NCBI GenBank assembly: GCA_023667765.1
Contig: JAMOZS010000012.1
Span: 1 to 54,882, forward strand
Direction: 5' to 3'
DNA length: 54,882 nt
Origin: Roseburia sp.
GTDB lineage: Bacteria; Bacillota; Clostridia; Lachnospirales; Lachnospiraceae
Shown one piece after another: positions 13,501-48,053 of the stretch. Position 1 is the stretch's first letter. Every line of letters begins with the position of its first letter. Position numbers and translations under genes: made by a program. The notes beneath the pieces are model-generated. The model did no database searches and was not told the DNA's origin. It worked only from the letters and a program-made list of their open reading frames with translations.

Positions 13501-14858
13501 GCGAGGTCTATCGCTCCCTTTCCGTCATTTTCTTTATAATTCGGCGTTGCCGTAAGTATCAGCTGCACCCATTTCGCATAAAGGGTTATGTTCCTTGCAG
13601 GAGTATATGTTTCTCCGTCCATACCCACAGGACGGGTACAGGCTGCATCCTCATACCATCCTCCAAAGGACCATCCCTCCCGAGTGGTCTTTGGCAGAAT
13701 CACAGACTCCACAGCATATGTGGCAGTCATTGTGTCCACCGCTCCATTCTCCCCGCAGAAATAATAAATCTCTTCCAGATATCTTCCATAAAAGGGTTCC
13801 TCCAGCCTCCAGCCCTGAAAGCTGCGCTCCGCCAAAAGCTTTGCTGCCGCCTTTCCCCCCTGACTGTCAAAAGATACGGTAATTCCCTTTGGCGCTTTTA
13901 GCAGAGATAACTTCGGCGCATAAGAAGTTCCATATTCCTGGGTAATCATAACCATCTTAGCGCTTCCCATATAAGTTCCCCCTGCGGGGTCAATCCTCAA
14001 CGTACTCCTGCATGACTTCCACTGTGCATAAAGCACAATGGTCTCCTTATCCTTGCCGGTTAGATTCAGAATGGTCTGTTCCTCCTTATAGGCCGTGCCC
14101 TTCCCATCCGCCCTGGTATTCCATCCGTCAAAGGTATAACCAATCCGCTGATATGTATTTTTACGCAGCTTCCTTTCCCCATTTACTGCAATCCCTTCAT
14201 AGCTTGTGGCATTGTTGTAAAAGAACACGGAATCCTCCATATATCCGTTTGCATTTGGATTGTTTTTCTCATATTTTACGGTATATTTGTTCCAGGAAAT
14301 TTTTTTACACGCATGACTGACGGCTCGTCCCTGCTCCAGATTGTTACACAGCGGACATAAATAATAATAATCTACCCCCGCCGGCAGACAGGTCATACTC
14401 TGAGCCGTCTCCTTATCCATATAAAACAAAAAATCAATCTTCTCTCCACAGTCGGCACAGACCGCAATCCAGCCGCTTTTATAATATCCCCCGCAGTTTT
14501 TCTTTCCGAAGGTGATTCCATGCCAGCCCGACTCTATACCATAACTATTATGAATACAATGACCGGGAGAATACTTCACCTCCCACCTCTTAACAGGAAT
14601 ATCATCCTTTCTCTCCGTTATATAATAATGCTCCCCCGTTTGAAGCGCTCTCAGACCGGGGCTTACCCCTGTATTGACAGAAGTCCCTCTGGAATAGGCC
14701 ACATAGTCTCTTTCTTTGGCATCTGTGGTAAAGGCCTTTCTGTCCGGAGCCCAGGTAATATTCGGATTACCCTGCAGAGCCTGAGCCTGTGCCTTCACGC
14801 CGACTGATAAGCACAGACCGACAGCCAGTCCCAGCAGTCGTTTCATAATATGTCTCAT
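10560..14858 (-). CDS. Large secreted Tad-locus protein: zinc ribbon, InlB-type repeats, glycine-rich domain
   Basis: A 1432-residue protein with a Sec signal peptide (MRHIMKRLLGLAVGLCLSVG). In order: an N-terminal region with a double CxxC zinc-ribbon-like motif (CADC about 134-137, CPLC about 168-171); two InlB/Listeria-Bacteroides repeat units ending LYAQW (about 280) and LYAKW (about 430); a glycine-rich domain (about 515-635, with AAGGGGGASPAGNGG); then beta-rich, Ig-like segments with fibronectin-like stretches. No LPxTG or C-terminal membrane anchor is seen. The ATG at 14858 follows AGGAGG. It lies inside the Tad operon, so a pilus-associated adhesin or tip protein is the likely role (inference). 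Confidence 0.75.
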   Translation of the reverse strand: MRHIMKRLLGLAVGLCLSVGVKAQAQALQGNPNITWAPDRKAFTTDAKERDYVAYSRGTSVNTGVSPGLRALQTGEHYYITERKDDIPVKRWEVKYSPGHCIHNSYGIESGWHGITFGKKNCGGYYKSGWIAVCADCGEKIDFLFYMDKETAQSMTCLPAGVDYYYLCPLCNNLEQGRAVSHACKKISWNKYTVKYEKNNPNANGYMEDSVFFYNNATSYEGIAVNGERKLRKNTYQRIGYTFDGWNTRADGKGTAYKEEQTILNLTGKDKETIVLYAQWKSCRSTLRIDPAGGTYMGSAKMVMITQEYGTSYAPKLSLLKAPKGITVSFDSQGGKAAAKLLAERSFQGWRLEEPFYGRYLEEIYYFCGENGAVDTMTATYAVESVILPKTTREGWSFGGWYEDAACTRPVGMDGETYTPARNITLYAKWVQLILTATPNYKENDGKGAIDLAWSQPDAIPKTYLLSQSRDRKNYIRLKGAAREEDAVMLNQSYAFTGSAQTVVIPSAGFYELTASGAQGEDYEKYAGGKGGLAEARMYLEKGDVLTVKVGGQNRYNGGGKGSVYGNGGGATTIVSKKKGMLIAAGGGGGASPAGNGGAGGKETSLNADMSAKGENGYSGGGGGYVGGKAGQYITHEHVKECYREDAMLCDVLATGVGIYKSSVENMHSMDNTINPDAGDYRIGGHNGGAQGDACTSSFYIQKLPAKGYTTLAFTLEMCAEGGNSGAMLEGRDDQYLQITDDSGTTIWYGDRNSLRVIPDTSSDDEKYDDRRESYLKADSGVRWTEKNVETTAVKQYVKFVGEIAIPEGTSTIQIKSGFRTNNKVYHYHSQTWKALSMSGTKKTKICPYTKGQILSAKPAYGGSSFVAEGAAKSSRKAGVQSGDGRAVIKAVSVGYQDGQKLKGVAAPDLEAPDKVAVNTVEQKAAGNGSIQISWKEPIDYGTVYYHKAESFGVADEERICTSNITNTEIRTGIKGYYYLLDSKADSRLTAKDGRYLKTGSLTFTPASGQQYLHLAAVDGAGNLSDTIHIPCGFQNTKLLWKPRTQQLEISSMVAGTEYGSVCRIDDKHYYVRADGKTPFQLLFTAGLQGEARSDYQVNNIILVNRDGRTEQRFIAEAPYGKLSRERQELPGESIRVQLTAKEPLGMIAARGGTRFEHGKGITYFQGFTLGGEWNGKQVEVLPVAGADYEEGVQYSDWQEDEKHGLFIIGDGEAPVISGAEVLENIAVIKREETDLELLLTAADELSGVGKFEAILQNSTDFSEVRYSPQEDGCIRIDLSEDSPLLAGDFKMTICATDRVGNERILEYELTEFGLSAEVERILEPHLPVFKCGESGVLKIRAWGYADRIEVEFPAEMTELNPELNHTYVYESPQWRREEQLVFMIPLYTPANGEYRITVRAYKGGSCIEEYPSLCTVSVTDSILDEIRTRLR

Positions 14859-14946
14859 ATACTCTCCTCCTCTCATGTCTCCCATATGCCCAGCGCCATG
14901 CCTTTCTGCTATTTGATAACCCTCTCAGAAACACCTTCCGAACCCG

Positions 14947-15669
14947 TTACATGGAATCAAAATCCCATACCTTCACCACTCTCAGACTTCCCTGCTCTAT
15001 TCCACTATAAAACCGTTCCACATCCTTTCCATCCAGATAGACATTAATACGCTGGGCTGCCGTCTGCCTATCCTCGCCGGAAATAGCCTTACCGGAGCTG
15101 TCAAAAACCTGCTGTACATAAACCTCACTCCATACAAGCCGCACACTGTTTTCTTCCTCTACGCAATAAATATGTATCCTGTCCCCGGCCCGAAGAACCC
15201 CTCCTGCTACCTGGCTCAAATCCTCCGCTTTAAAACCTGCTATGACAGGCTGCTCCATATCTTTCGTAATTTCATTCAGCTGTTCAAACATCCCCTGTGT
15301 GAGCAGCACGCCCTCCTCAATAGAGAACAAAGCCGCCATTCCTTTTATCTGCTCCGGCTCCTTCAATGCACCGGCCGGAATACAGCTTGCGTCCAGGCTT
15401 CTGCCCGTAAAATATACCTCTCTGTTCTCAGGAGTAATGACCATACCCTTGGGTATCTCCTTTGCCGCAGTATAAATGATTCCTTGCTCATAGGGCTCCA
15501 GCAGCTTTTTCTCCAGCTGCAGCATAACCACAAATACCGTAACCGCCGCAATAAACGAGGTAATAATCACACCGCTCCAGAAGCGTCCGCTGCCGCTTTT
15601 TCCGACAGTACCCCTTCGCTTCCCTTTGCTGTCCTCTTTTGACTCTCTTTTCAAACCTTCTCTTCTCAT
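14947..15669 (-). CDS. cpaB: SAF-domain pilus assembly protein, CpaB/RcpC-like
   Basis: A 240-residue protein with a basic N-terminus, one membrane segment (about 32-52) and an extracytoplasmic SAF-like domain: AAKEIPKGMVITPENREVYF, then a second half with GGVLRAGDRIHIYCVEE. This is the CpaB/RcpC family of Tad systems, which in Gram-negatives links to the secretin; here no secretin is present and the protein probably acts in the cell wall. GGGAGG precedes the ATG. It stands between the TadE-like genes and the large secreted protein gene. Confidence 0.75.
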   Translation of the reverse strand: MRREGLKRESKEDSKGKRRGTVGKSGSGRFWSGVIITSFIAAVTVFVVMLQLEKKLLEPYEQGIIYTAAKEIPKGMVITPENREVYFTGRSLDASCIPAGALKEPEQIKGMAALFSIEEGVLLTQGMFEQLNEITKDMEQPVIAGFKAEDLSQVAGGVLRAGDRIHIYCVEEENSVRLVWSEVYVQQVFDSSGKAISGEDRQTAAQRINVYLDGKDVERFYSGIEQGSLRVVKVWDFDSM

Positions 15670-15705
15670 ACAACCCTCCCTGTTCGCATAGGCGTTTCTC
15701 TCACG

Positions 15706-16320
15706 TTAAGCTTCTCCCTGAATATCTACCAACTTACCCTTATGCGCTCTTACCTGTATTCCCCAAATTCCTCTTGTCATAAAGGCAATTTCGCTGTAAA
15801 TACCGGTTGCCTCCACTAAAATACCGTTAGGAGCTCTCACATTTCCCAGTACCCCTTCCGTTTCGCTTATCCGACCGTCTTCGGATACCCTGTAACTAAA
15901 GACCCTGTCCTGTTCCACATTAAAGATAATATAATTGACCACCTCTACCTTTCCGTCAATCAGACTCTTATTCCCGCACTCCCAATTCTGATTCAGATTT
16001 AAATTGCCTTTGATAGCCTCCCGGCAGCGCTCATATGCCTGCCCCGGGTTGCTCAAGCGTATCCTATGGGAAATACCATACTCTTCCAAGTCGATAATGG
16101 CCGACGCCAGATTTGATGCCGCCAGCGCATCCTCCAAATACAGGCCGGTGCTGCGATACTGCTCCAGCTGCAGCTGCGTGCTCAGCAGTACCGCTAAAAA
16201 CAGGATAAAAAACAATCCCAGACACCATCCTATCTGCCCCGATTCCTTTTCAGACAGCCATTTCCCGTTAATTTTTCGCCGTAGAAACCCTCTTCTCCTC
16301 AAATGTATACCTTCCTCCAA
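15706..16320 (-). CDS. TadE/TadG-like minor pilus protein, probable TTG start
   Basis: A 204-residue protein: a basic N-terminus, one membrane helix (about 30-48, GWCLGLFFILFLAVLLS) and a soluble C-terminal domain with no recognised motif. Size, topology and position fit the TadE/TadG/TadF pseudopilins of Tad loci. No ATG fits. The frame opens with TTG at 16320 preceded by AAGGA, or with a second TTG at 16302 preceded by GGAGG. Either way it overlaps the end of the upstream gene, which suggests translational coupling. Confidence 0.6.
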   Translation of the reverse strand: MEEGIHLRRRGFLRRKINGKWLSEKESGQIGWCLGLFFILFLAVLLSTQLQLEQYRSTGLYLEDALAASNLASAIIDLEEYGISHRIRLSNPGQAYERCREAIKGNLNLNQNWECGNKSLIDGKVEVVNYIIFNVEQDRVFSYRVSEDGRISETEGVLGNVRAPNGILVEATGIYSEIAFMTRGIWGIQVRAHKGKLVDIQGEA

Positions 16321-16633
16321 GCTTTCCTTTTATGCAGAGTGTAACCGGCGCTCCGTAACCGACCTGCTGCAAAGTCGTGCCGGCCAGACTGGTATCCGTC
16401 ACTCCTATTTCTCTCAGCTCCTCTCTGAGAGCAGATTCGTCAGGCTCTGTCAAATAACCTATCGTCTCCATGCGTAAAATATATTTTCTTGCCAACTGCC
16501 CTGCCATAGACTTCTGATGAATCAATTCCGTACACTCCATGTAGGCAAGCATCATCACGGTCATTGCAAGAATGCAAAGCCCCGTGGACAGAAGGTCTCC
16601 TATATTGCCCGGCTGCTTTTGCTTTTTCTTCAT
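16268..16633 (-). CDS. TadE-like (DUF4320-like) pilus protein
   Basis: A 121-residue protein with a short basic start (MKKKQKQPGN), one membrane helix (about 12-30), and a conserved-looking region CTELIHQKSMAGQLARKYIL followed by METIGYLT, as in the DUF4320/TadE-like proteins of clostridial Tad loci. The start is the ATG at 16633 after AAGGGG. It lies 69 bp after the pilin gene and overlaps the next gene by 53 bp. A minor pilin role is inferred from topology and context. Confidence 0.6.
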   Translation of the reverse strand: MKKKQKQPGNIGDLLSTGLCILAMTVMMLAYMECTELIHQKSMAGQLARKYILRMETIGYLTEPDESALREELREIGVTDTSLAGTTLQQVGYGAPVTLCIKGKLGGRYTFEEKRVSTAKN

Positions 16634-16702
16634 AGCTATACCCCTTGCGTGCTTCAGCACGCATCCCAAACTCAATAAATTAAGTTGAATGCATGATACC
16701 TG

Positions 16703-16948
16703 CTAGCTTGTCTTACCGAGAATATTTTTTGCTTCCAATGTCAGTTCATTGATAATTGTGGTAATAAAGTCTGAGAGACTATCCTTCATAACCACACATA
16801 ACAACAGCGCAATCACACACAGACCCACGGTAACCAATATGCCGTCGATTCCCTCGTCCTTTTTCCTGCCTTCCCGGCAAATTCCCCTTACTCCCATAAG
16901 AACTCTCTGTTCTAAATCCTTCGCCGCCCTTTTTATCTGAAATATCAT
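16703..16948 (-). CDS. Flp-type major pilin (DUF6133-like)
   Basis: A small protein of 81 residues with a basic leader and one long hydrophobic helix, EGIDGILVTVGLCVIALLLC, followed by a short amphipathic tail. This is the layout of class III Flp pilins in Firmicutes. The processing site probably lies near the EG/IDG junction. Two ATGs, at 16954 and 16948, are possible: AGGAGG stands 3 bases from the first and 9 from the second, so the second is preferred. The gene follows tadC, the usual place for a pilin in a compact Tad operon. Confidence 0.7.
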   Translation of the reverse strand: MIFQIKRAAKDLEQRVLMGVRGICREGRKKDEGIDGILVTVGLCVIALLLCVVMKDSLSDFITTIINELTLEAKNILGKTS

Positions 16949-16997
16949 ATTCATTTTCCTCCTATTCCGCCGCTTCAGCGGCTCTGTCATCTGCGTC

Positions 16998-17843
16998 TTA
17001 TAAGTGAATGGTTGCCGAAAACATCTGACTCACACAGGCATATAGCACAATCCCCATTACGGCAGCCAGAATACCAAGCTGATAAAAGGTTATGCTTCTG
17101 TCCAAAGCCTCTTTTTTTCCTGCCAGCGCCGAAAGCTCCATGTCCTTAATCTGCTCTGCCAAATCGCTTAGCAGCTCTGCTGCCTGACCGGATTCCATAG
17201 CCTGCAGAATAATTATGCATAACGAATCAATATGTCTGTTATCAAACTTATCCTGGAAGCGTTCCAGCGCTTCATACAAATCCCCATGCATTACGATATC
17301 TCCCGCCAGCTCCAAAAGGGCCTGCTTAAGACGCTTATCCTGCACACATCCATAGCATTCAGCCAGAGCTGACGTCACATAAACTCCCGCCCTGATTTGT
17401 ATCTCCAGCGCATGATACAGAAGCTTCAGCTCCTGCAGAAGGCGTTTGTTATCCTGAGCGTTTAAATATACCACCAGTCCCGACGGCAGCATATAAAGCG
17501 AAAGCATCGCCAGCAATCCATAAGAAATGCCAAGCTGAGAGAGCGTCAAAAAGCCTGCCGCCGCCAGAAGCAAACGTGCCGTCAGAAAACGAAAGGGCGT
17601 TATTTTCTCTCCCAAATGATAGGCCGCGCCATTTTTCCCAAGCCATCTTTCGCTTTTCCGATACCAGGTAAGCTCCTTTCCCCGACCGGTCATAAGCTCC
17701 ACAAAATCCCCACAGCTTTTCAAAAAAGCATGCTTTCGTATTTCCTGTCCCTGTCGGGCCAACTGCCAAAACAATAGCAATATCAGTTCTGCTGCCACAT
17801 AGGGCAAAAACTCCAGGCAAGCGCCAATCCATTTCTGCTCCAT
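16998..17843 (-). CDS. tadC: Type II secretion F-domain membrane protein TadC
   Basis: A 281-residue integral membrane protein. The central cytoplasmic domain has the T2SF pattern: LLYHALEIQIRAGVYVTSAL, GDIVMHGDLYEALERFQDKF, ILQAMESGQAAELLSDLAEQ, flanked by a membrane pair near 85-125 and a C-terminal helix. Together with TadB it should form the inner-membrane platform that TadA drives. AGGAG precedes the ATG, 56 bp after tadB. Confidence 0.8.
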   Translation of the reverse strand: MEQKWIGACLEFLPYVAAELILLLFWQLARQGQEIRKHAFLKSCGDFVELMTGRGKELTWYRKSERWLGKNGAAYHLGEKITPFRFLTARLLLAAAGFLTLSQLGISYGLLAMLSLYMLPSGLVVYLNAQDNKRLLQELKLLYHALEIQIRAGVYVTSALAECYGCVQDKRLKQALLELAGDIVMHGDLYEALERFQDKFDNRHIDSLCIIILQAMESGQAAELLSDLAEQIKDMELSALAGKKEALDRSITFYQLGILAAVMGIVLYACVSQMFSATIHL

Positions 17844-17899
17844 CCTACTCCTCCGTTTCTGCGGCTTTTTTGTTTCCTGCCTTCCTGACTCTTCTTTTT

Positions 17900-18832
17900 C
17901 TATTTATTCAGGCGCAGTACCTGTCGCCCGAAAAGGATAAATATCCCCAATACGATTCCCAAGGCCAGTCTCCCCGGCCAGGTTCTGTATAAAATCTCCC
18001 AAATAGAGGTGCTAATCAGCTTATCCACGGTCATCAGCGAAAACAGGGACAAGAAAAGCAGCAAAAGCATATTGATTGCGGCCTCCCGCAGCATACCCTT
18101 CCGTTCCCTGCGCAGTCTCAGATACTCACGCATGGACCTGCGGCTGCTGTTTACCAGCATGGTAAAATCCGCACAGTAACGGCTGGTAATCTCCATATTG
18201 CGCACCAACTCCTTGAACTTCGGATGCTCTATCCGCTCTTCCATGGAAAGCATGGCGGCTCCCACATCTCCCGTGGTCTGCGCCTCATAACAGCAGCCCT
18301 CCAGAGCGCTTTTCAAGGGCTCCTCCAAGTATCTTCCCACCTGTAAAAATATGCCGGTGATTTCTCCTGCCGTGACACTGTAATTTCCCAAAAAATCCAA
18401 TAGTTTCAACAGATTTTCATTCACACTTTTCATCTCCTTCATACGGGCATAGCCAAAAACCAGATATTCCAGCCCCAGCAGAAGGCTGATTCCGACTGCC
18501 GCCCCCAAAAGCCCTACTGTCAGCAACAGCAGCAGAAAGCAAATTGCAATTACTCCCATTTCCATGACAAGAAACCACTCCGCCGTAAACATGGGAAAAC
18601 GTCTTTTGATACCGCAATAGTCCAACTCCCGTTCCACCAGGGCGCAAAAGCCCTGCCTTTGCTTAAGCTTTGTCAACCCCGCTCTCTTCTCCAGGAGTCT
18701 GGCCCTGGCGGCGTCCTCAAGCCCGGCTCTCGTACTCTGCAAAAGTCTTGTAACGCTGCGCAGTACGGCAAAGCGATAAAACAGAGCTCCAAAGCCTGAA
18801 AACAGCAAGCCAAATATGATTATTCCGAACAT
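17900..18832 (-). CDS. tadB: Pilus assembly platform protein TadB
   Basis: A 310-residue integral membrane protein with helices at the N-terminus (about 1-20), in the middle (about 95-125) and at the C-terminus (about 255-305). The cytoplasmic part contains NYSVTAGEITGIFLQVGRYL and a CCYEAQTTGDVGAAMLSMEE stretch, as in T2SF/TadB proteins. GGAG precedes the ATG. It directly follows tadA and is followed by the paralogous tadC. Confidence 0.75.
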   Translation of the reverse strand: MFGIIIFGLLFSGFGALFYRFAVLRSVTRLLQSTRAGLEDAARARLLEKRAGLTKLKQRQGFCALVERELDYCGIKRRFPMFTAEWFLVMEMGVIAICFLLLLLTVGLLGAAVGISLLLGLEYLVFGYARMKEMKSVNENLLKLLDFLGNYSVTAGEITGIFLQVGRYLEEPLKSALEGCCYEAQTTGDVGAAMLSMEERIEHPKFKELVRNMEITSRYCADFTMLVNSSRRSMREYLRLRRERKGMLREAAINMLLLLFLSLFSLMTVDKLISTSIWEILYRTWPGRLALGIVLGIFILFGRQVLRLNK

Positions 18833-18874
18833 CCTGTATCTCCTTTCCTTCTATCATCACTGTTTAAATCCAGA

Positions 18875-20029
18875 CTAAAGAATCCGTTTATAACACAATG
18901 TCTTTTTTTCGTTGCTCCAACCCTCGCAGCTAAAAATCTGACTGACCTTGTAATGCTCCATAAAAATCATTGTGTGAAAACAATCTAACATTTTCATCAG
19001 TTCCTCTCTTGCATATCGACTCTCATACATGGCATAGTCCACCAGCTTATCCAGCGCTCTGTCCCCCGAGGCCGCATGTATGGTAGCTGCACATAACTGT
19101 CCCGTATAAGCTGCATTTAACAGATACAGAGCCTCCCCTCCCTTGATTTCACCTATAATAAAGCAGTCCACATCCATGGTCAGACCCGCTATACTGATAT
19201 CCTTTAAATCATAGCTTACCTGGCTGTCACCGGAGGCCGGCAGAGAATGCAGAAACATCATATCCGGGTGAAACCGGGTGGTCAGTTCATCTGCCTGCTG
19301 AATCACCAGCACTGCCATATCATCCGGCAAAGTCTCCTTCAGGGCATTCAGCAATGTGGTCTTTCCCGAAGAATTTCCCCCACAGATAAGAGTAGAGCCC
19401 TGTCTGAAACGACTAATCAACAGCTCGGCTGTCTCTCGATTCAGCATATTCTTTTCAATCAACTCCCTCATCTGCGGAAAACCTTTGGGTACTTTACGAA
19501 TGCACAGATAAGGTTCCTGTCCCGTATTGACCAAAGGCATGGAAACCGTAAACCTTAAGATAAAATCCGGATGACTTTCCGTGTCTGTAAAACGCTGAAT
19601 CGCATTAAGATTAGAGATATTTACCTGATTCTTTGTGGCTACATAATCCACAAACTGACGATATTCCTTCTCCGAAGCAAACGCTACGCCGCCGTCCATA
19701 CGCCGGCCTTCCCGCTTTACCCGAATACTGTCATAACCCACCACACGGATATCCGATACAGCCCTGTCGTCAATTAACGGGGACAGAATGGAATATCCGA
19801 ATATGTATTGCTCAAAGCTTCGAATCAACCTTTCCTCATCGGAAGGCGCCAATTCATAATAATGCGCTACATGCTTTCTGGCTTCCTCTAAGAATTCCGC
19901 CTTACTCAGGCTCCCCTTTTTTACCTGTAACAAAAGCACCTGCTTCTGGGTAATATAATCATTTACCAACTCCTGCAGCAGCTCCCCCATATCTTCCGTT
20001 GTAGCCTGTCTCAAATTTTGCCGCTTCAT
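18875..20029 (-). CDS. tadA: Pilus assembly ATPase TadA/CpaF
   Basis: The hexameric ATPase powering Flp pilus assembly, 384 residues. An N-terminal three-helix region and the CpaF domain (IFGYSILSPLIDDRAVSDI) precede the ATPase core: Walker A GNSSGKTT (about 218-225), an aspartate-box region, Walker B FIIGEIKGGE (about 291-300) and the His box AATIHA (about 314-319). The usual R in GEIRGGE is K here. The start is the ATG at 20029 after GAGGGGAG; a 27-codon upstream extension is unlikely. It is the first gene of the operon, behind the promoter at 20194-20222. Confidence 0.92.
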   Translation of the reverse strand: MKRQNLRQATTEDMGELLQELVNDYITQKQVLLLQVKKGSLSKAEFLEEARKHVAHYYELAPSDEERLIRSFEQYIFGYSILSPLIDDRAVSDIRVVGYDSIRVKREGRRMDGGVAFASEKEYRQFVDYVATKNQVNISNLNAIQRFTDTESHPDFILRFTVSMPLVNTGQEPYLCIRKVPKGFPQMRELIEKNMLNRETAELLISRFRQGSTLICGGNSSGKTTLLNALKETLPDDMAVLVIQQADELTTRFHPDMMFLHSLPASGDSQVSYDLKDISIAGLTMDVDCFIIGEIKGGEALYLLNAAYTGQLCAATIHAASGDRALDKLVDYAMYESRYAREELMKMLDCFHTMIFMEHYKVSQIFSCEGWSNEKKTLCYKRIL

Positions 20030-20156
20030 CTCCCCTCTTTTCACTCTGTATTGCCGCTCCGCGCGAAAAGCGTACAAAAACAAAGCCTTGTATTTCGTAC
20101 TTATAAACACTAAAACTTAAAATGATACTTCCGGCCGAAATGGCCTGAATAAAAGA

Positions 20157-40168: not shown

Positions 40169-40624
40169 CTATCCGACGATTGCCTCCTCCAGCACATCGC
40201 CCCGATATCTCAGAGTGATATCCAGATGCCTTTCTCCTGCCATCAAACGCTTTAAAAATACCTGGTCGCCTTCCCACAAATTCAAATCAAGCACCTCGTC
40301 TTTGGGAATCCAGCGAAGCTCTCCCTCCCGGCAATCCGGGCGCAATGTTCCTGTAAAGCCGTCAGCCGTAAAAAGATACATCTCCTCATCCTCGAAACAG
40401 TCCGAGCGGAAATGTATCAGACCTGCCAGCGTATAGGAGGTGAGCGTCAGGCCCGTTTCCTCATAAGCCTCTCTCAGCAGACATTCCTCCGCGCTCTCTC
40501 CCGGCTCAAACTTGCCACCGATACCAATCCACTTGCCCTCATTGATATCGTTTTTCTTTTTGTTGCGAAGCAGCATTAAATACTGATTATCTTTTTCTAT
40601 ATAACATAATGTCGTATTTATCAT
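40169..40624 (-). CDS. Nudix hydrolase (MutT-like)
   Basis: A 151-residue pyrophosphohydrolase. The Nudix box is complete: GGKFEPGESAEECLLREAYE followed by ETGLTL. The opening MINTTLCYIEKDNQYLMLLR resembles 8-oxo-dGTP diphosphatase-type members, so nucleotide-pool cleaning is the likely role, but Nudix substrates are hard to call. The second of two close ATGs (40624) is chosen because GGGG stands 6 bases before it and the family core begins there. Confidence 0.85.
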   Translation of the reverse strand: MINTTLCYIEKDNQYLMLLRNKKKNDINEGKWIGIGGKFEPGESAEECLLREAYEETGLTLTSYTLAGLIHFRSDCFEDEEMYLFTADGFTGTLRPDCREGELRWIPKDEVLDLNLWEGDQVFLKRLMAGERHLDITLRYRGDVLEEAIVG

Positions 40625-40787
40625 AGGATACCCCATTTTTCATTTTTATCTTTTCGGTCGGACGGACTCCCGACTCTAATAAGGTATCATCCTCCCTTCC
40701 CCCTGTCAATCTGTTTTCTTTTCGTTTCTTTTTGTTTTCCTCAAATGCCTGTTATCAGGCAATCGCTTTTTTAAATTCTGCAAGCCG

Positions 40788-42938
40788 TCAGGACCCTCCA
40801 TCATATTTTGTTACGACAGGCAGTCTTGCCCCCATTCTACATAATAATTCATTGCTGATGCTCCCGGCGTTATCTGCCACGTCAGGCGCCGATATTCCCA
40901 TATCATCCTGCCCGCCAATCAATATTGCGACATCCCCTATCGCCACATCCGGGGCATCCGTGATATCAACGGCAAGAGAATCCATACAGATTCGGCCAAT
41001 GACTGGCACACAATATTGTCTAATCTGCACGCTGCCGCTGCCGCAGGACAGATGCCTCGGATATCCGTCTCCATATCCCACCGGCAATATGGCTATCCGA
41101 CTGTCCCGCCGTGCAATAAAACTTCTGTCATAACCCACGCTGTCGCCCCTACATATGGAACGTATCAATACCACCCTGCTTTTCAGGGAAAGAACGGGGC
41201 GCAGCTCCAGCTTCCACTCCGTAATGTCCCCGGGGGAGCTGAGTACACCGTACAGCGCTATCCCTGCTCTCACATAATCGCATCTGAGACCCGGATAATT
41301 CCAAAAACCATAGCTACTCTGCACATGGAGTCTGGGAATGGCAATCCCCCTTTCCTTCAAGGCCTCCACCAGACTATAGAAGCTGTCAATCTGCCCTCTG
41401 GTAAACGAAATATCATCAGGCCTGTGGCTCTCCGCGCAGCATAAGTGGGTAAACATCCCCTGAACCTGTATCTTCCTCATATCAAAGACAGCCGCCACCC
41501 AATCCGTATTCCTGCTTTCTATACCCAGCCGATGCATACCCGTGTCTATCTTAATATGAGCCTTCACCCCAATCCCCCTTTTATTCAGGGCTTCGGCATA
41601 AGCAAAGTCTATCAGAGTCTGGCTCAAATCATATTTTTTCAGCTCGGACGCCCGCTGCACATCCGTGTATCCCAGAATAAGAATCTCACCTCTCACCCCG
41701 CATTTCCTAAGCTTAATCCCCTCGTCAATCGTTGCAACGGCAAACGCTCTGACTCCCATTCTGCTAAGATGGACAGATATTACAGAGGCTCCGTGCCCAT
41801 AACCCTCCGCCTTTACAACAGCCATCAATCTGCACATGGGCGGCATGGCCCTCTGCAGCGTTCTTACATTATGCTCCAGGCTCCTTAAATCTATTTCCAC
41901 ATAGGCCCTCTCGGTATTGGGATTATGCTTCACCTTCACGGGTCTTACTTTCTTCCAAAGCGCTGCCATCACCATGCCGGAGGACACAGATAGCAGACAG
42001 ACCGTCAAATAATGCACGGCACTGTTTTGCACCAGCAGCTTTTGCAGTCCGAACAGCTTTGCAAACAGCCGGAGGACCACTATCACCATAGGATGTATGA
42101 TATAAATTATCAGGGACGCCGTTCTGAAATTCTCAAATCGTTTTCCCCTGAAATGCAGAAGGGCATAAAACAGAAAAAATACACAGGGCAGTAAAAACAC
42201 ATACATACTGTCATGACGCGGCAAAGCAAAATGATGCAAGAGCATACCCTCGCTCAACAGGCAGATAAGACTGATAAAAAAACCGGCCATACTTTTTCCA
42301 GGGGAATCCCTGTAACGATGCTCAGCCAAAAAACCTCCCATTACAAAGAATACAGGCGCAAAAAACAGACCGTTTCTCGTATAATCAAATAATTGGAACA
42401 ATAGTTCATATAATCCCCGCAGCCCGGGAATCCTCTCTGTTATTCCGTAGTAGCTGTCTCCCAACAATCCCAGCACATAAAGCCCCAGCGCAGCCTCCGT
42501 GACCCTTTTATAATCAAGCTTCTTTACCAGAAACCAGGCGACAGTCCCTCCCAACAGGGAGGCAGGCAGATACCATAAATGATATAGTGTGCCGTCAAAC
42601 ACGATATCCTTAAGGATATTCGGCAACAGCGCATCCCTTTTAAAATAACCGTTATACAAATTAACAGGAAGATAAAACAGTATCCCTGCTCCATAAAAAA
42701 GAGCCGTCCTCTTCAGGAAACGGCGCAGTCTTTCCCCGTCGCAGGTATACCGGGAAATCAGGAAAAATCCCGACGTCATAAAAAAGAACGGAACCGCCAC
42801 ACGGGCCACAATGCGCGTCAGTATCAAATCACCCGTTTCAGTGAAAGAGGCAAGCGGCGATGTGTGAATCGCGATAATCAACAAAGCAGCAAGCATTCGG
42901 AATACGTCGATTCCCCCATAATTTTCATTTTCATTCAT
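40788..42938 (-). CDS. vanT: VanT-type membrane serine/alanine racemase
   Basis: A 716-residue fusion. The N-terminal half (about 1-335) is an acyltransferase-3 type membrane domain with about ten helices (IDVFRMLAALLIIAIHTSPL), thought to take up or bind L-Ser. The C-terminal half (about 340-716) is an alanine racemase-type PLP domain with Lys376 in MAVVKAEGYGHGA, VGYDRSF with the catalytic-Tyr region, and GYGDGYPR. It should supply D-Ser for VanG. AAGGAG precedes the ATG at 42938. The gene lies 56 bp after vanG, but vanXY, usually between them, is missing. Confidence 0.88.
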   Translation of the reverse strand: MNENENYGGIDVFRMLAALLIIAIHTSPLASFTETGDLILTRIVARVAVPFFFMTSGFFLISRYTCDGERLRRFLKRTALFYGAGILFYLPVNLYNGYFKRDALLPNILKDIVFDGTLYHLWYLPASLLGGTVAWFLVKKLDYKRVTEAALGLYVLGLLGDSYYGITERIPGLRGLYELLFQLFDYTRNGLFFAPVFFVMGGFLAEHRYRDSPGKSMAGFFISLICLLSEGMLLHHFALPRHDSMYVFLLPCVFFLFYALLHFRGKRFENFRTASLIIYIIHPMVIVVLRLFAKLFGLQKLLVQNSAVHYLTVCLLSVSSGMVMAALWKKVRPVKVKHNPNTERAYVEIDLRSLEHNVRTLQRAMPPMCRLMAVVKAEGYGHGASVISVHLSRMGVRAFAVATIDEGIKLRKCGVRGEILILGYTDVQRASELKKYDLSQTLIDFAYAEALNKRGIGVKAHIKIDTGMHRLGIESRNTDWVAAVFDMRKIQVQGMFTHLCCAESHRPDDISFTRGQIDSFYSLVEALKERGIAIPRLHVQSSYGFWNYPGLRCDYVRAGIALYGVLSSPGDITEWKLELRPVLSLKSRVVLIRSICRGDSVGYDRSFIARRDSRIAILPVGYGDGYPRHLSCGSGSVQIRQYCVPVIGRICMDSLAVDITDAPDVAIGDVAILIGGQDDMGISAPDVADNAGSISNELLCRMGARLPVVTKYDGGS

Positions 42939-42994
42939 TATGATTCTCCTTATTCCTCGCAACCGTCGCAAGGAAGCCGTCTGTATTGTCTCCC

Positions 42995-44044
42995 TTATTT
43001 GACATACAGGCCTATCAGCCTGTCCAGCATCTCCCCGAAGGACAGACCAATTCCTTTCATCATATTCGGATAACGGCTATGGGAGGTGAACCCGGGAATG
43101 GTATTTACCTCATTAAAAACAATTTCACCGGCAAGTGTCAGGAAGCAGTCCACTCTGGCAAAGCCCGAACAGCCAAGCACCCTGTAAATAATTTTGGCAG
43201 TCTCCTGTATCCGCCGCTCCGTCTCCTCATCTACCCTGGCAGGCATATAAATTCTGGACGCCCTCAGGGTATATTTCTCCGTATAATCAAAGAAACCGCC
43301 CGACAGCTCAATCTCATCCACTCTTCCCACCGTCAGTTCCTCCCTGCCAAGCACAGCGCAACCCACTTCAAAGCCATCCACAGCCTCCTCAACGATAACC
43401 TCGTCATCATGCTCAAAGGCAAGAGCAATAGCGGCATTTAATTCCCGCTCTTTCATTATCCTTGTGATTCCAAAGGAAGAGCCTGCCCTGACAGGCTTCA
43501 CAAAAAGCGGAAACTTTAGCTTCTCGATAATTTTCTGCATGGCCGTATTCCTTTCAAATTCCCTGAAGGTGACAGCTTCCGGAACGGATATTCCTGCAAG
43601 GCTCACCAGCTTATGCGCCTTGTCCTTGTCCATACACAGAGCGGAACAGAGTGTGCCACAGCCTATGACAGGTATACCTGCCAGCTCAAACAGCCCCTGC
43701 ACAGTACCGTCCTCTCCGTTCTTTCCATGAAGTACGGGAAATGCCAGGTCAATCCGCACCGTTTTGTACTTATTCCCGGAAAGCTCCAAAAAGCCCCCAA
43801 CGCGGCAGCTTTGAGCCACAGCCACGGGAGAAAGAACAGTATCCTCCTGAAACCAGGTATTGTCCAGAATATGTTTGTATGCTCCCGTGTAGTGATACCA
43901 TTCGCCATCTCTGGTAATGCCAATCGGATAGACTTCATATTTTTCAGCATTAATATTTTCCAGAACGGAACATGCCGACGCCAGAGACACTTCATACTCC
44001 GTGGATTTTCCTCCAAATAAAACAGCTATTTTCTTTTTTTGCAT
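42995..44044 (-). CDS. vanG: VanG-type D-alanine--D-serine ligase
   Basis: A 349-residue ATP-grasp ligase that makes D-Ala-D-Ser for vancomycin-tolerant peptidoglycan precursors. Motifs: VLFGGKSTEYEVSLASACSV, FPVLHGKNGEDGTVQG, FVKPVRAGSSFGITR, VEEAVDGFEVGCAVLG, FDYTEKYTL and FNEVNTIPGFTSHSRYPNMM. It resembles VanG much more than housekeeping Ddl (for example GITRDGEWYHYTG). The gene is followed by vanT. Upstream stands a terminator in the same orientation and a truncated vanR, so expression may depend on read-through. Confidence 0.9.
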   Translation of the reverse strand: MQKKKIAVLFGGKSTEYEVSLASACSVLENINAEKYEVYPIGITRDGEWYHYTGAYKHILDNTWFQEDTVLSPVAVAQSCRVGGFLELSGNKYKTVRIDLAFPVLHGKNGEDGTVQGLFELAGIPVIGCGTLCSALCMDKDKAHKLVSLAGISVPEAVTFREFERNTAMQKIIEKLKFPLFVKPVRAGSSFGITRIMKERELNAAIALAFEHDDEVIVEEAVDGFEVGCAVLGREELTVGRVDEIELSGGFFDYTEKYTLRASRIYMPARVDEETERRIQETAKIIYRVLGCSGFARVDCFLTLAGEIVFNEVNTIPGFTSHSRYPNMMKGIGLSFGEMLDRLIGLYVK

Positions 44045-44089
44045 CTCTTTCCTCTTTTCTGCGGATGTACCGCCGTTTCAGCCCAAAGC

Positions 44090-44136
44090 AAAAACACTCC
44101 TGCTCCGGTACCTTTATTGTACCAGGAACAGGAGTG
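44090..44136 (-). terminator. Intrinsic terminator immediately upstream of vanG
   Basis: CACTCCTG/CAGGAGTG and CTCCGGTAC pair with their counterparts (44095-44136; one mismatch, one bulge), followed on the minus strand by five T. Only about 46 bases separate it from the vanG start, and no promoter is visible there. Confidence 0.75.
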
Positions 44137-44198
44137 CCCTTTATCTGTTTTTCCATAAGATATTCTGAAGATTTTCTGCAAAATTTCTTACAATTTTC

Positions 44199-44378
44199 CT
44201 ACGAAACCGGAAGCGTCGCATCCAGAATCGCCAAGTCCAGCTTTGTGTGCTCAATACAGTTCATTGCGTCAGCGCCATTATAAAACTTATATACCGTATA
44301 TCCGTCATTTTTCAGATAAACCTCAATTAAATCGGCTATCACCTTCTCATCATCCACTACCAAAATATTCTCGCTCAT
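44199..44378 (-). pseudogene. vanR: Truncated vanR-like response regulator
   Basis: A 59-codon frame begins MSENILVVDDEKVIADLIEV and continues YLKNDGYTVYKFYNGADAM, the N-terminus of VanR-type response regulators. It keeps the acidic pair D9-D10 and the phosphoacceptor D53 (LAILDATLP), then hits a TAG where a full regulator would continue through the rest of the receiver and a DNA-binding domain. After the stop another frame stays open for about 20 codons (RRKIVRNFAENLQ...). AAGGAG precedes its ATG, 11 bp after the galK stop. It looks like a deletion remnant of the vanRS genes. Confidence 0.85.
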
Positions 44379-44388
44379 TTTCCGCTCC

Positions 44389-45672
44389 TTACCATACCCG
44401 GACGCCGCCCTCCGGCCTTATCTTGAGGACATGGCAGCTGTTCTCCCCAAATACCGCCTCCATCCTCTCTTTATAATATGGTACCGCCTCATTTTTCACA
44501 AAAGCCTGAATCGTTCCTGCAAAGCCCCCGCCATGTATTCTGCACACGCCGTCCTCCCCCAATATACGCTCCGAAAGAGCCAGCGCCAGCGTTACATTCT
44601 GAGTCTCCACAGCTCTCGGACTATATATATTCTGTAGAAACTTTGCGGAAGAATCCCCGCTTCTCTTAATGACCTCCAAAAAGGCATTATAATCCGAGGC
44701 TCTCAGAGCCGCCGCCGCACGTTCAACCCGCTTATTCTCCTCAAAGAAATGAATCGCCCGCAGCAATGCCCTTTCCGAAACCTTCCCCCGCAGACGGGGG
44801 ATTCCCTGATAGAATTCCTGCTCCGACACCTCCCTCAGAACCTGTTTCCCGAAAAGCTTCGCCACGGCTCCCATCTCCAGGGGTACCGCCGCATAATCCG
44901 GCGTCAAATCCGCATGGGAACCCCCGGTGTCCACAATACACAGACTGATACCTGCCTTCTCAAAGTCACTTTCCACCCGCTCCACAACAGGACGTTCCCT
45001 ATCCTTGAAATCTATATAAACCATACCGCCCACACTACATGCCATCTGATCCATAAGTCCGCAGGGCTTTCCAAAATAGACATTTTCCGCAAATTGACCA
45101 ATCTGTGCAAGCTCCCCGGCAGAAATACGCTGCTCATTATATAAACCGGACAGAATCGTTCCCAGCAGACTTTCAAAGGCGGCGGAGGATGACATTCCCG
45201 AGCCCATCAAAACATCGCTGGTAATATAGGTCGTGAAACCGCCTGTCTGATAGCCTCTGTCTCTGATTCCTGCAATCACTCCCCGAATAAGCGCCGCGGT
45301 CGTATTCCTTTCCTCCTCCCGTACTTTCAGGTCGTCTATCTCCATCTCCACCACCGGGAAATCTCCTGATGCCAACCGCACAAACGGCTCCTCAGACTTA
45401 GCGACTATAGCTATTGCATCCTGATTCACAGAAGCCGCCAACACCATGCCTCCCTGATGGTCCGTGTGATTGCCGCATACCTCGCTCCTTCCGGGAGCAC
45501 TGTATATCTCCGCCTGAGTCTCGTTCGGAAACAGCTGCCGAAACCGCTCCAGAGCTATCCCATATCGTTCCCTCTGCCTCTCTATAGCAGCTTTGTCTAC
45601 ATAAATCGCTCTCATTCTTTCATCTAACCGCCCCTTTTCCAGCTCCTCCTTTATCCATGCGACACGCTTCAC
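44389..45672 (-). CDS. galK: Galactokinase
   Basis: A GHMP kinase phosphorylating galactose at C1 (Leloir pathway), 427 residues. Motifs: SAPGRSEVCGNHTDHQGG (sugar site), LMGSGMSSSAAFESLLG (ATP loop) and IHGGGFAGTIQAF near the C-terminus. The start codon is GTG at 45672, 8 bases from AGGAGG. No galT or galE gene is nearby. The vanR remnant follows directly. Confidence 0.92.
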   Translation of the reverse strand: MKRVAWIKEELEKGRLDERMRAIYVDKAAIERQRERYGIALERFRQLFPNETQAEIYSAPGRSEVCGNHTDHQGGMVLAASVNQDAIAIVAKSEEPFVRLASGDFPVVEMEIDDLKVREEERNTTAALIRGVIAGIRDRGYQTGGFTTYITSDVLMGSGMSSSAAFESLLGTILSGLYNEQRISAGELAQIGQFAENVYFGKPCGLMDQMACSVGGMVYIDFKDRERPVVERVESDFEKAGISLCIVDTGGSHADLTPDYAAVPLEMGAVAKLFGKQVLREVSEQEFYQGIPRLRGKVSERALLRAIHFFEENKRVERAAAALRASDYNAFLEVIKRSGDSSAKFLQNIYSPRAVETQNVTLALALSERILGEDGVCRIHGGGFAGTIQAFVKNEAVPYYKERMEAVFGENSCHVLKIRPEGGVRVW

Positions 45673-45773: not shown

Positions 45774-46838
45774 TCATGGAGTTGCAACACCCTCAACAGC
45801 CTCATTTCGAGGAATAGAATAACAATGTCCAAATTCATCAGTAATAGTGAGACGATTCTCGAATACGGCAAGCCGGATATTGGACGGGATGGAAATCCAC
45901 GCTTCTTCCATTTTACTTATAGGCGGCTTAATGTACTTCATAATATATTTACCCATCTCCCTGCCGGCACGGTTTATAAGCATGTTCCATGCGTCTTCAC
46001 CTATTGCATATCGGCCCCCCTCCTCAACATATTTTGCTTTGAGTCGATTCAAAAGCGGAGAAGGTGTTGAATCAAATACTATCAAAACAGGCGTTAGTCC
46101 AGCCTTTCGAACCTCATATGGAAAACTCATTTCCTCGTCAAATCGTCCTTGTCCACTGGCAGCGATTGTTACACGCAACTTCAATTCATAAGCCTCTCTC
46201 GCTTCCTCAATATAGCAATCGATTTGGCGTCCTTCTTTTGTTGGATTACCATTATCGTCAATACGCTTAACCGGAGAATATCTATGCGGCATCGGCTCAC
46301 CGCCAAGGCAGCTTGCTAAAATCGGCTCAAATAAATAGCCTGTTTCCTGAGCGCTGCGATTGTCCATATCATATATGAGCTTTCTCCAACTCATCCAGGA
46401 GAACAGTAAATCATCCTCGCAATTACCATATTCCAGTAAACACCTCGGCCCTATTTGTTCAGTTAATGGAAATGGTTGCGTTTTTAAGATATTGTAAAAC
46501 TTAAATCTTCTACGCCAAAGCTCCGAGAGATTTTTCAAATAAAGATATATAACATTTTCAGTATTGGTAGTTCCGGAGAGTTGCAAAAAGTTTATCGCTT
46601 CTTCAATCTCTACATCAGGCAGCTCTGCAACCCTTTCCGGTGTGATAGTATAAAAACTCTCCTTTGCAAGTCTGCAAAACGGACTGGAAAACCAATCCGG
46701 CTCATTGTCAAAAATGTCCAGATAAGCAATATGGATAAGCAGGACAACATCTTTTGGCGCAATTTCTACCATAGCAGAACCGACACCATGCTGTGAAAAT
46801 GTTTTGTAAAAAACTCTTTGTTGACGGGTTACAGACAT
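45774..46838 (-). CDS. Type II restriction endonuclease, possibly ApaLI-like
   Basis: A 354-residue protein with a PD-(D/E)xK-type active site: candidate E171 (YLFEPILA), D207 (RQIDCYI) and E218-L-K220 (AYELKLRV). The stretch ELKLRVTIAASGQGR, with VLIVFDSTPSPLLNRLKAKY and AIGEDAWNMLINRAGREMGK, recalls the ApaLI-type endonuclease family (target GTGCAC), but this is from memory. The ATG comes 4 bases after the methyltransferase stop, with GGAGG inside the end of that gene, so the two are tightly coupled. Sequence here reads as more AT-rich than the flanks. Confidence 0.75.
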   Translation of the reverse strand: MSVTRQQRVFYKTFSQHGVGSAMVEIAPKDVVLLIHIAYLDIFDNEPDWFSSPFCRLAKESFYTITPERVAELPDVEIEEAINFLQLSGTTNTENVIYLYLKNLSELWRRRFKFYNILKTQPFPLTEQIGPRCLLEYGNCEDDLLFSWMSWRKLIYDMDNRSAQETGYLFEPILASCLGGEPMPHRYSPVKRIDDNGNPTKEGRQIDCYIEEAREAYELKLRVTIAASGQGRFDEEMSFPYEVRKAGLTPVLIVFDSTPSPLLNRLKAKYVEEGGRYAIGEDAWNMLINRAGREMGKYIMKYIKPPISKMEEAWISIPSNIRLAVFENRLTITDEFGHCYSIPRNEAVEGVATP

Positions 46839-46841
46839 ATC

Positions 46842-48053
46842 CTATACCTCCATCCGCAATTGCTCATATTCATGAATCTGCAATGTTCTTAGCATATTGC
46901 ATGTTCTTTGTAAGGCCGGGCTCTTGGCTGTTGCTTTAGTAACATCAAATTTGGCCAATGACGGGCATTCTTCATTGGGCACATTTTCATCGCACATAAT
47001 AATTTGTTTTGCCATCTGTTCAGCAAATACGGGGGGAATCGCATTGGCGATTTGAAGTATTTTTTGTGCGTCAGTCCCACAAAACAAAAAAGAATCGGGG
47101 AAAGTTTGTACTCTTGCACATTCTCGAATCGTAAGAGTTCTATTCTGCGTAGGATGAACAAATTCTGATGGAGCGGCGCTTGTTATCGTCAGACATGGCT
47201 CATTATATGACAACCGTTTCAATCCGGAAGGCGCACCACCCCTTTTTTCAGAGGGAGTTCCATCACACACTCTTCTCGATGCTCTGCGCTTAAAAGAAGC
47301 ATGCTGCAAATGCTTGGGCAAATCCTTCATGGTTTGCCCAACTTTCAGTGCAGAGATTCGCTCCAGCTTTGTTCCGCTTTCCTCTTTTCGAATATGGTCA
47401 ATTTCAGGAATATCGCACAATTCCAAATCACTTATTGCTTCTCGTAAAGTAAATGATGAGTCTCTATATATTAACCCCGATGCCCTCTCAACAGGCTCAG
47501 GAAAATCAAATTTTTTACCTTCCCGATTGCCAACAATAATTACTCGTTTTCTTCGCTGTGGTACCGAGTATTCTTGCATATACATTTTTTTCAAATTAAC
47601 CGTATAGCCAACACTAATCATTTTCTTTATACATTCAACAACATATGTACCCGCAGCTGTTGTCAATATTCCCTCCACATTTTCCATCATAAACCAACGT
47701 GGATAGAACACTTCGAGTGCCTGTACATAGTTTTGCACCAGCTTGTTGCGAGAATCATCCCCAAAGCGATTCCCCGCTGTTGTAAATCCCTGACATGGCG
47801 GGCCACCAATAATTAAATCCAACTCACCGTGTTGCAATCCTAAACCGTTTCGTAACTGCAAAAAATCACACGACGCCAAATCAACATTGCGACAGATATT
47901 TACGCCAAAATTCATATTATAGGTGGCAATTGCAGACTCAGCATTTTCGAAAGCCGCAAGAATTTCAACCCCCGCATTCCTGAAACCTAATGAGCACCCA
48001 CCCGCCCCTGCAAACAAACTAATTGCCTTCCATATTTTTTTCTTTGTATTCAT
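46842..48053 (-). CDS. DNA cytosine-5 methyltransferase of the RM system
   Basis: A complete 403-residue m5C methyltransferase: motif I LFAGAGGCSLGF (13-24), motif IV GGPPCQGF with the catalytic Cys87, motif VI ENVEG (124-128), motif VIII QRRKRV (166-171), a target-recognition region (about 180-300), and motifs IX-X ending IANAIPPVFAEQMAKQI. It protects host DNA from the partner endonuclease that follows. GGAG stands about 10 bases before the ATG. Its start overlaps the AlkD-like fragment by 35 bp. Confidence 0.93.
   Translation of the reverse strand: MNTKKKIWKAISLFAGAGGCSLGFRNAGVEILAAFENAESAIATYNMNFGVNICRNVDLASCDFLQLRNGLGLQHGELDLIIGGPPCQGFTTAGNRFGDDSRNKLVQNYVQALEVFYPRWFMMENVEGILTTAAGTYVVECIKKMISVGYTVNLKKMYMQEYSVPQRRKRVIIVGNREGKKFDFPEPVERASGLIYRDSSFTLREAISDLELCDIPEIDHIRKEESGTKLERISALKVGQTMKDLPKHLQHASFKRRASRRVCDGTPSEKRGGAPSGLKRLSYNEPCLTITSAAPSEFVHPTQNRTLTIRECARVQTFPDSFLFCGTDAQKILQIANAIPPVFAEQMAKQIIMCDENVPNEECPSLAKFDVTKATAKSPALQRTCNMLRTLQIHEYEQLRMEV

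What the first reader, a model, noticed from the sequence alone, without database searches (positions are those of the whole stretch)
40788..44378. vanG-vanT cluster lacking vanXY and vanS
vanG and vanT are intact and 56 bp apart. The D,D-peptidase/carboxypeptidase gene vanXY that normally separates them is absent, and so is a sensor kinase. A cell with this set could make D-Ala-D-Ser but could not remove D-Ala-D-Ala precursors, so it may give low-level resistance at most or serve another role for D-Ser in the wall.
Basis: partly seen in the sequence, partly recalled or inferred. Interest (0 to 1): 0.7.

Follow-up and report, generated by a model that had tools for sequence, protein, structure and literature searches.

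The report
Stripped vanG operon keeping vanG-vanT
A gut bacterium keeps the two genes that make a vancomycin-evading cell-wall building block but has lost, beside them, the gene that removes the normal block and the sensor switch, so it probably makes a mixed wall and is not truly resistant; many related bacteria lack the same gene.

Summary
Confirmed: intact vanG (42995-44044, -) and vanT (40788-42938, -), 56 bp apart, no vanXY or vanS beside them. New: the cluster looks like a full vanG-type operon reduced by two deletions whose scars remain. (1) vanR is a 59-codon stub (44199-44378): vanR codons 1-~54 run in frame into the last codons of vanS. (2) The vanG-vanT gap carries about 17 codons resembling the vanXY 3' end. 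VanR-box-like promoter sites survive. The genome (93.7% complete MAG) shows no VanX or VanXY and one VanY-like carboxypeptidase; it does hold a VanR/VanS-family pair elsewhere (contig C28), so "no sensor kinase" is true of the cluster only. Of 127 classifiable VanG loci (chosen by likeness, not a census), 59 lack vanXY beside vanG; the vanG tree needs at least 23 changes of state (12 forced by well-supported branches). XY-less vanG genes keep the tested catalytic residues and low dN/dS. Most likely: an operon decayed to its D-Ala-D-Ser branch, giving mixed precursors and no or marginal resistance; control by the C28 regulator is possible, untested. New variant of a known kind.

The parts
44199..44378 (-). 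vanR stub: 59 codons, ATG to TAG; vanR codons 1-~54 running in frame into the last ~5 codons of vanS (LPVS-stop)
   Evidence: Response_reg 1-53 of 111; NCBIfam vanR-D positions 1-57 of 232; 79% to L100 VanR over 1-57; vanS 3' ends of relatives end in like codons and continue into like DNA
44182..44204 (-). two VanR-box-like 12-mers, TCGTAGGAAAAT (44204-44193) and TTGTAAGAAATT (44193-44182)
   Evidence: only matches to the pattern in the window; 0 of 131 control stretches of vanG coding DNA match; the pattern was chosen after seeing these sequences; places
44090..44141 (-). 22-pair hairpin followed by Ts, with TACAAT in its loop; TACAAT equals the -10 quoted for P_YG of E. faecalis
   Evidence: fold of 44045-44150: -43 kcal/mol, z -5.64, 0 of 200 shuffles as good (place); -10 from PMC4405338; neither the sigma-70 nor the terminator scan picked it
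42995..44044 (-). vanG, D-Ala:D-Ser ligase, 349 aa
   Evidence: NF000091 558.3 bits, cut-off 495; 4fu0 4.9e-173; Phe252 where own Ddl has Tyr
42943..42993 (-). probable vanXY scar: 17 codons reading GDNTDGFLATVARNKEN, like the VanXY C-terminus SGNNxDGFIVTxWR
   Evidence: the first 11 residues score 22.0 on a profile of 59 VanXY C-termini; 0 of 1000 dinucleotide shuffles reach it, best 21.0
40788..42938 (-). vanT, membrane-bound serine racemase, 716 aa
   Evidence: PF01757, PF01168, PF00842; vanT-G-Cterm 532.6 bits, cut-off 460; 4ecl 6.7e-144; Asn of the SNEL motif kept
44389..45672 (-). galactokinase-like GHMP kinase just upstream; its stop ends 10 bp before the stub's ATG
   Evidence: PF10509, PF00288; sequence

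Best explanation
This is a vanG-type operon (vanR-vanS-vanG-vanXY-vanT) cut down by two internal deletions. One joined vanR in frame to the 3' end of vanS and left the DNA before vanG whole; the other removed vanXY except about its last 17 codons. [Read from sequence: stub, scar, intact vanG and vanT. Inferred: order and mechanism; vanR and vanS of relatives both carry an LP-coding CTTCC-like stretch at the join, so short-homology deletion is likely.] VanT would turn L-Ser into D-Ser and VanG would join D-Ala to D-Ser, while the host Alr and Ddl go on making D-Ala-D-Ala. Without VanXY the two dipeptides compete at MurF, giving mixed precursors and at most marginal resistance. [Inferred from family biochemistry.] Transcription needs either the VanR-family regulator of contig C28 acting in trans on the kept boxes, or a leaky promoter; otherwise the pair is silent. 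[Not shown.]
For: Scar 1: the stub ends ...ATLPVS-TAG, then GAAAATTGTAAGAAATT; vanS of L079 ends ...VTLPVS-TAG, then GAAAATTGTAAGAAATT, and the vanS-vanG distance is 152 (L079) against 155. Scar 2: 0 of 1000 shuffles. A parallel: in L074 vanR is cut at about the same codons and runs into the 3' end of vanW. No VanX (PF01427, 0 matches) and one PF02557 protein, which scores 74 bits against VanXY references where four vanG-linked VanXYs score 271-335 (a fifth is itself the reference). Own Ddl and Alr exist. Tested catalytic and specificity residues of VanG and VanT are kept, with one exception given opposite. VanR-family regulator elsewhere: 350.9 bits, cut-off 350; its helix stretch DNNNTVMKHIGKIREKL is close to [DN]NNNTVMAHIG[RK][LI]REK[LM], seen in 26 of 31 vanG-linked VanRs found by a motif filter.
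Against: The scar-2 margin over the best shuffle is thin (22.0 against 21.0). Scar 1 rests on relatives of about 70% identity; no near-identical strain is held. The genome is a 93.7% complete MAG in 101 contigs, so a vanXY elsewhere is not excluded. VanT has Ser where 50 of 56 compared VanTs have Gln after CMD. The C28 VanS is below NCBI's VanS cut-off (362.9 against 400), and C28 sits with M23 and C39 peptidase genes, so its signal may be another; no VanR box was found before the C28 vanR or after its vanS.
Confidence: 0.75

Rival explanations
1. The pair is a kept, working two-enzyme D-Ser module with a job other than glycopeptide resistance (wall with partial D-Ser), regulated in trans or constitutive.
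For: 59 of 127 classifiable VanG loci lack vanXY, with at least 23 changes on the tree; one 11-locus clade is wholly XY-less, with no vanRS in the 7 loci that have enough upstream DNA (4 cannot be told); dN/dS of XY-less vanG pairs is low (median 0.14 over 76 pairs, against 0.17 over 75 XY pairs); of 17 XY-less genomes searched 4 hold no PF02557 match and 16 no PF01427 match.
Against: In the window the stub, the scar and the orphaned boxes look like recent loss; no result here shows another role.
Confidence: 0.35
2. Silent, decaying pseudo-operon: no activator at its promoter, no product, soon to be lost.
For: vanR reduced to a stub, vanS and vanXY gone; a hairpin with a T run stands between galK and vanG and could stop read-through; of 24 clusters lacking both vanXY and vanRS only 3 still keep a box, the window among them, which fits recent loss.
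Against: vanG and vanT are full length with the tested active-site residues intact but for one in VanT; a VanR-family regulator is encoded on C28.
Confidence: 0.35
3. The D,D-peptidase is supplied from elsewhere (the C11 VanY-like protein), so the cell is resistant after all.
For: C11 has a VanY domain (129.9 bits) and matches chains named D-alanyl-D-alanine carboxypeptidase (5hnm 1.5e-36). In C. difficile a D,D-carboxypeptidase under dacRS lowers vancomycin susceptibility (PMC11326576, passages).
Against: It lies between ORFs that by eye are aroC and tgt, has near full-length relatives (43-50% identity) in six other genomes, two of them with a vanXY, and shows an N-terminal hydrophobic stretch by eye, so it would act outside the membrane and not on cytoplasmic D-Ala-D-Ala.
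Confidence: 0.1
4. Assembly artefact: reads of two clusters were joined.
For: MAG; no read data here.
Against: Both joins fall between genes of one operon in the usual order, with vanG promoter spacing as in relatives; XY-less clusters recur, also in records titled as strains (L112, L086).
Confidence: 0.05

Closest known systems
vanG operon of Enterococcus faecalis BM4518 (PMC4405338, passages)
   Same: VanG ligase, VanT membrane serine racemase, promoter with VanR sites and a TACAAT -10
   Different: There vanU-R-S and vanY-W-G-XY-T are present, and vanG, vanXY and vanT are called strictly required; here vanXY and vanS are gone and vanR is a stub
vanG-type clusters of Clostridioides difficile (L124, L129, L130) and Ruminiclostridium sufflavum (L100)
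   Same: gene order, with VanG 64-69% identical to the window's
   Different: they carry vanR-S-G-XY-T complete
vanR-S-G-XY-T of [Clostridium] aerotolerans DSM 5434 (L091)
   Same: vanG-type cluster, 68% VanG identity
   Different: complete, with VanXY; this strain is reported vancomycin resistant in vitro (PMC6868206, passage)
XY-less vanG-vanT loci, e.g. L066, L071, L085, L112
   Same: vanG followed at once by vanT with no vanXY; the L071 gap also scores as a vanXY scar
   Different: L071, L085 and L112 keep vanRS; in L066 neither vanRS nor a stub was found
L074 (uncultured Ruminococcus MAG)
   Same: vanR cut at about the same codons and running into a downstream van gene
   Different: runs into vanW; vanXY kept; its vanR piece is also frameshifted near the start (by eye)

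Membership tests
VanG-type D-Ala:D-Ser ligase | score over the NCBIfam NF000091 cut-off | tested here: met
   558.3 against 495
VanG-type D-Ala:D-Ser ligase | Phe at VanG position 252 (role recalled; not found) | tested here: met
   F in the window and in 59 of 59 XY-less loci; own Ddl has Y
VanG-type D-Ala:D-Ser ligase | makes D-Ala-D-Ser | not testable with these tools
   needs enzyme assay
VanT serine racemase | membrane domain plus racemase domain over the vanT-G-Cterm cut-off | tested here: met
   below the whole-length vanT-CELN cut-off (662.9 against 900)
VanT serine racemase | Asn in the SNEL motif that favours Ser over Ala (role recalled) | tested here: met
   N in the window and in 22 of 22 XY-less VanTs compared
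functional vanG resistance operon | VanXY D,D-peptidase | tested here: not met
   absent from the cluster, a probable scar only; no VanXY or VanX found in the genome
functional vanG resistance operon | linked VanR and VanS | tested here: not met
   vanR stub, no vanS
functional vanG resistance operon | VanR boxes at the promoter | tested here: inconclusive
   two box-like sites; -35 spacing does not match P_YG; binding not tested
functional vanG resistance operon | raised vancomycin MIC | not testable with these tools
   no culture
VanRS two-component system elsewhere in the genome (C28) | VanR over the NF033117 cut-off; VanS over the NF033091 cut-off | tested here: inconclusive
   VanR 350.9 against 350, VanS 362.9 against 400

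The most novel reading that the evidence does not exclude
Gut Lachnospiraceae repeatedly convert the VanG resistance operon into a two-enzyme D-Ala-D-Ser module without VanXY, here placed under a VanRS pair linked to wall-hydrolase genes (M23, C39), to build walls with partial D-Ser for a purpose other than glycopeptide resistance.
Probability: 0.25. Interest if true: 0.65.

Novelty: new variant of a known kind. Interest (0 to 1): 0.45.

Why it matters
Resistance catalogues list vanG and vanT as glycopeptide resistance genes. In the sample here nearly half of the VanG loci lack, beside vanG, the peptidase described as required for resistance, so such calls may overstate resistance. The repeated absence of vanXY with vanG kept under purifying selection also makes one question testable: does partial D-Ser in peptidoglycan have a use without vancomycin? 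The scars show one way such operons are dismantled: deletion out of vanR that leaves the vanG promoter region in place.

Tried and rejected
Ordinary Ddl: rejected. vanXY elsewhere in the genome: one PF02557 protein, VanY-like; no PF01427. Same chromosomal site in relatives: of 130 other loci only L168 and L176 have the AbrB, L192 a NUDIX, and L130 and L175 an FprA-like gene (E 1e-15, half length or more), so the locus is not syntenic. The galK homologue is in 15 of 138 genus genomes, the own one included; in the 14 other neighbourhoods fetched none of the other queried genes matched. C28 VanR in the genus at E 1e-85: only the own genome; the cut was too strict for a protein with a ~40-aa linker insert, so I asked again with C28 VanS at 1e-55: 68 of 138 genomes, of whose other matches 19 were fetched; 14 of those 19 have VanG beside them, and three (54-64% identity) are C28-like, two of them with the C39 gene. 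Both calls scored only 14-18 candidates a genome. Linked absence of vanXY and vanRS: Fisher p 0.0006 on 101 loci, but independent pairs on the tree give median p 0.22, so not claimed. dN/dS of the window's own vanG: synonymous sites saturated or nearly so. vanXY scars elsewhere: of 47 gaps scanned (12 of 59 XY-less loci left out for a missing vanT or a gap over 300 bp) only the window and L071 fall below 0.01, L102 at 0.03. XY-less clusters in print: none described (listings) or in the passages seen of PMC4405338, PMC11326576, PMC8146736, PMC4790382 and PMC6868206; PMC12366002 tabulates a MAG with vanW, vanG and vanT and no vanXY, without comment in the passages seen.
Full report
On the minus strand the order is galactokinase-like gene (44389-45672), vanR stub (44199-44378), vanG (42995-44044), vanT (40788-42938) and a NUDIX gene (40169-40636, named by eye). 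VanG passes NCBI's VanG cut-off and its best solved relative is 4fu0. VanT has the acyltransferase-type membrane domain and both racemase domains and passes the vanT-G catalytic cut-off. The gap is 56 bp.

The stub begins as a VanR (79% identical to L100 VanR over residues 1-57; NCBIfam vanR-D positions 1-57) and ends ...AILDATLPVS-stop. Many vanS genes of relatives end ...V.LP[VLM][SL]-stop or the like, and the DNA that follows in several (GAAAATTGTAAGAAATT...) is the same as that after the stub; from there to vanG is 155 in the window and 152 in L079 (in other relatives the distance ranges from 112 to 1708). So vanR codons 1-~54 run in frame into the last codons of vanS. VanR and VanS of relatives both carry an LP-coding CTTCC-like stretch there, so a deletion between short repeats is the likely cause (inference). 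L074 shows a second case: vanR cut at about the same codons and running into the last codons of vanW; that vanR piece is also frameshifted near its start, by eye. In 130 of 131 loci with more than 60 bases upstream (112 with 1200 or more) only these two such pieces were found; a third hit, L197, is a vanR of full length.

Between vanG and vanT one frame reads GDNTDGFLATVARNKEN, like the VanXY C-terminus SGNNxDGFIVTxWR. On a profile of 59 VanXY C-termini its first 11 residues score 22.0; none of 1000 dinucleotide shuffles did (best 21.0), and of 47 XY-less gaps only the window and L071 fell below 0.01. The margin is thin, but place, order and the longer match agree.

The genome (2.79 Mb, 101 contigs, 93.7% complete) has one PF02557 protein and no PF01427 protein. 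The PF02557 protein on C11 lies between ORFs that by eye are chorismate synthase and tgt, has an N-terminal hydrophobic stretch by eye, matches carboxypeptidase chains in the PDB and scores 74 bits against VanXY references, where four vanG-linked VanXYs score 271-335 and a fifth is itself the reference. Of 25 genomes searched, 17 are XY-less: 4 of these 17 had no PF02557 match, and no PF02557 protein of the other 13 scored above 92 bits against VanXY. Against a general absence: one, in the genome of L066, is a 172-aa protein without an evident membrane anchor, and the genome of L072 (G438) has three PF01427 matches, the best 146.7 bits, so a soluble peptidase elsewhere is not excluded in those two. 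A separate Ddl (C101) and Alr (C34) exist in the window's genome.

Regulation. Two VanR-box-like 12-mers stand at 44182-44204, the only ones in the window; 0 of 131 control stretches match. The pattern was chosen after seeing such sequences. Boxes occur upstream of vanG in 33 of 45 clusters with vanXY and vanRS, 2 of 10 with vanXY alone, 13 of 22 with vanRS alone and 3 of 24 with neither. Next to them a strong hairpin followed by Ts covers a TACAAT; P_YG of E. faecalis has that -10 and three VanR sites (PMC4405338, passages). The quoted -35, AAAACA, is present but 24 bp away instead of 16, and the sigma-70 scan found nothing there, so the promoter is not proven. The genome encodes a VanR-family regulator (350.9 bits, cut-off 350) and a VanS-like kinase (362.9, cut-off 400) on C28, with M23 and C39 peptidase genes. 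The recognition-helix stretch is DNNNTVMKHIGKIREKL against [DN]NNNTVMAHIG[RK][LI]REK[LM] in 26 of 31 vanG-linked VanRs caught by a motif filter. In E. faecalis a VanR'G of 65% identity stands in for VanRG, and in C. difficile 630 another two-component system is said to induce the vanG genes, though not in R20291 (PMC11326576, passages), so control in trans is possible; it is untested here.

How common it is. I classified 131 distinct VanG loci: 80 named loci (the best 80 of 426 confirmed candidates), 40 of 76 other VanG-bearing genomes of the genus, 20 of 44 others of the family sample, and the window; 10 duplicates were merged. 68 have vanXY next to vanG, 59 do not, 4 could not be told. The sample was drawn by likeness to this VanG and is not a census. 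On a quick LG+G4 tree the state changes at least 23 times, 12 forced by starred branches; shuffled labels need 42. The tree cannot tell loss from regain; the scars speak for loss in the window and L071. With the own genome counted, 45 of 299 genomes of the family sample and 77 of 138 of the genus have a VanG at E 1e-80. The genus is perhaps Acetatifactor: contig lengths of G022 and G422 equal those of records titled Acetatifactor, but G363 and G355 match records titled Blautia and Gastranaerophilales.

Function kept. In XY-less loci 12 VanG positions tested, known catalytic motifs among them, are invariant, and position 252 is F in 59 of 59 (67 of 68 XY loci; Y in own Ddl). In VanT the Asn of SNEL is kept in 22 of 22 compared (33 of 34 XY); 56 VanTs passed a motif filter, the rest were left out. 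The roles of these two residues are recalled. Against full activity: the window VanT has Ser after CMD where 50 of 56 have Gln. dN/dS among XY-less vanG pairs has a median of 0.14 (76 pairs), XY pairs 0.17 (75 pairs); pairs are not independent.

Mechanism. VanT makes D-Ser, VanG makes D-Ala-D-Ser, Ddl goes on making D-Ala-D-Ala, and MurF uses both (family knowledge). [quoted passage not shown] So a mixed wall and no or marginal resistance follow, if the pair is expressed. As a contrast, C. aerotolerans DSM 5434, whose cluster is complete here (L091), was vancomycin resistant in vitro (PMC6868206, passage).

What is new is modest: a stripped variant of a known operon with readable scars, and evidence that the same gene is absent in many separate branches. 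Searches for XY-less vanG clusters in print (listings, plus passages of the papers named) found no description of the pattern; only part of the literature is held.

Noticed in passing
L076 6001-8750; also L070, L080: vanG clusters without vanXY in which a hexapeptide acetyltransferase (EpsC/CysE-like, below cut-off; family search for L076 only) stands between vanG and a VanT catalytic domain that lacks the membrane part.
   Followed up: partly
L268 2877-7238 (G000:C28): VanR/VanS-family pair between an M23 and a C39 peptidase gene; VanR has a ~40-aa linker insert. C28-like pairs at 54-64% VanS identity in G393, G415 and G325, the first two with the C39 gene.
   Followed up: partly
L074 75-263: vanR piece running into the 3' end of vanW, cut at about the same vanR codons as in the window.
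   Followed up: yes
L103, L108, L111: vanG with no VanT found within 5-6 kb downstream.
   Followed up: no
L101, L109, L133: Clostridial-type vanG contigs in MAGs titled Bacteroides, Muribaculaceae or Gastranaerophilales: probably misnamed or mixed bins.
   Followed up: no
window 45774-48053: C-5 cytosine methylase and a 354-aa ORF without Pfam match, possibly its restriction partner, next to galK.
   Followed up: no
window 10560-20110: A run of ORFs that by eye resembles a Tad-type pilus cluster (a 1441-aa surface-protein-like ORF, two TadB/C-like ORFs, a CpaF-like ATPase); no family search done.
   Followed up: no
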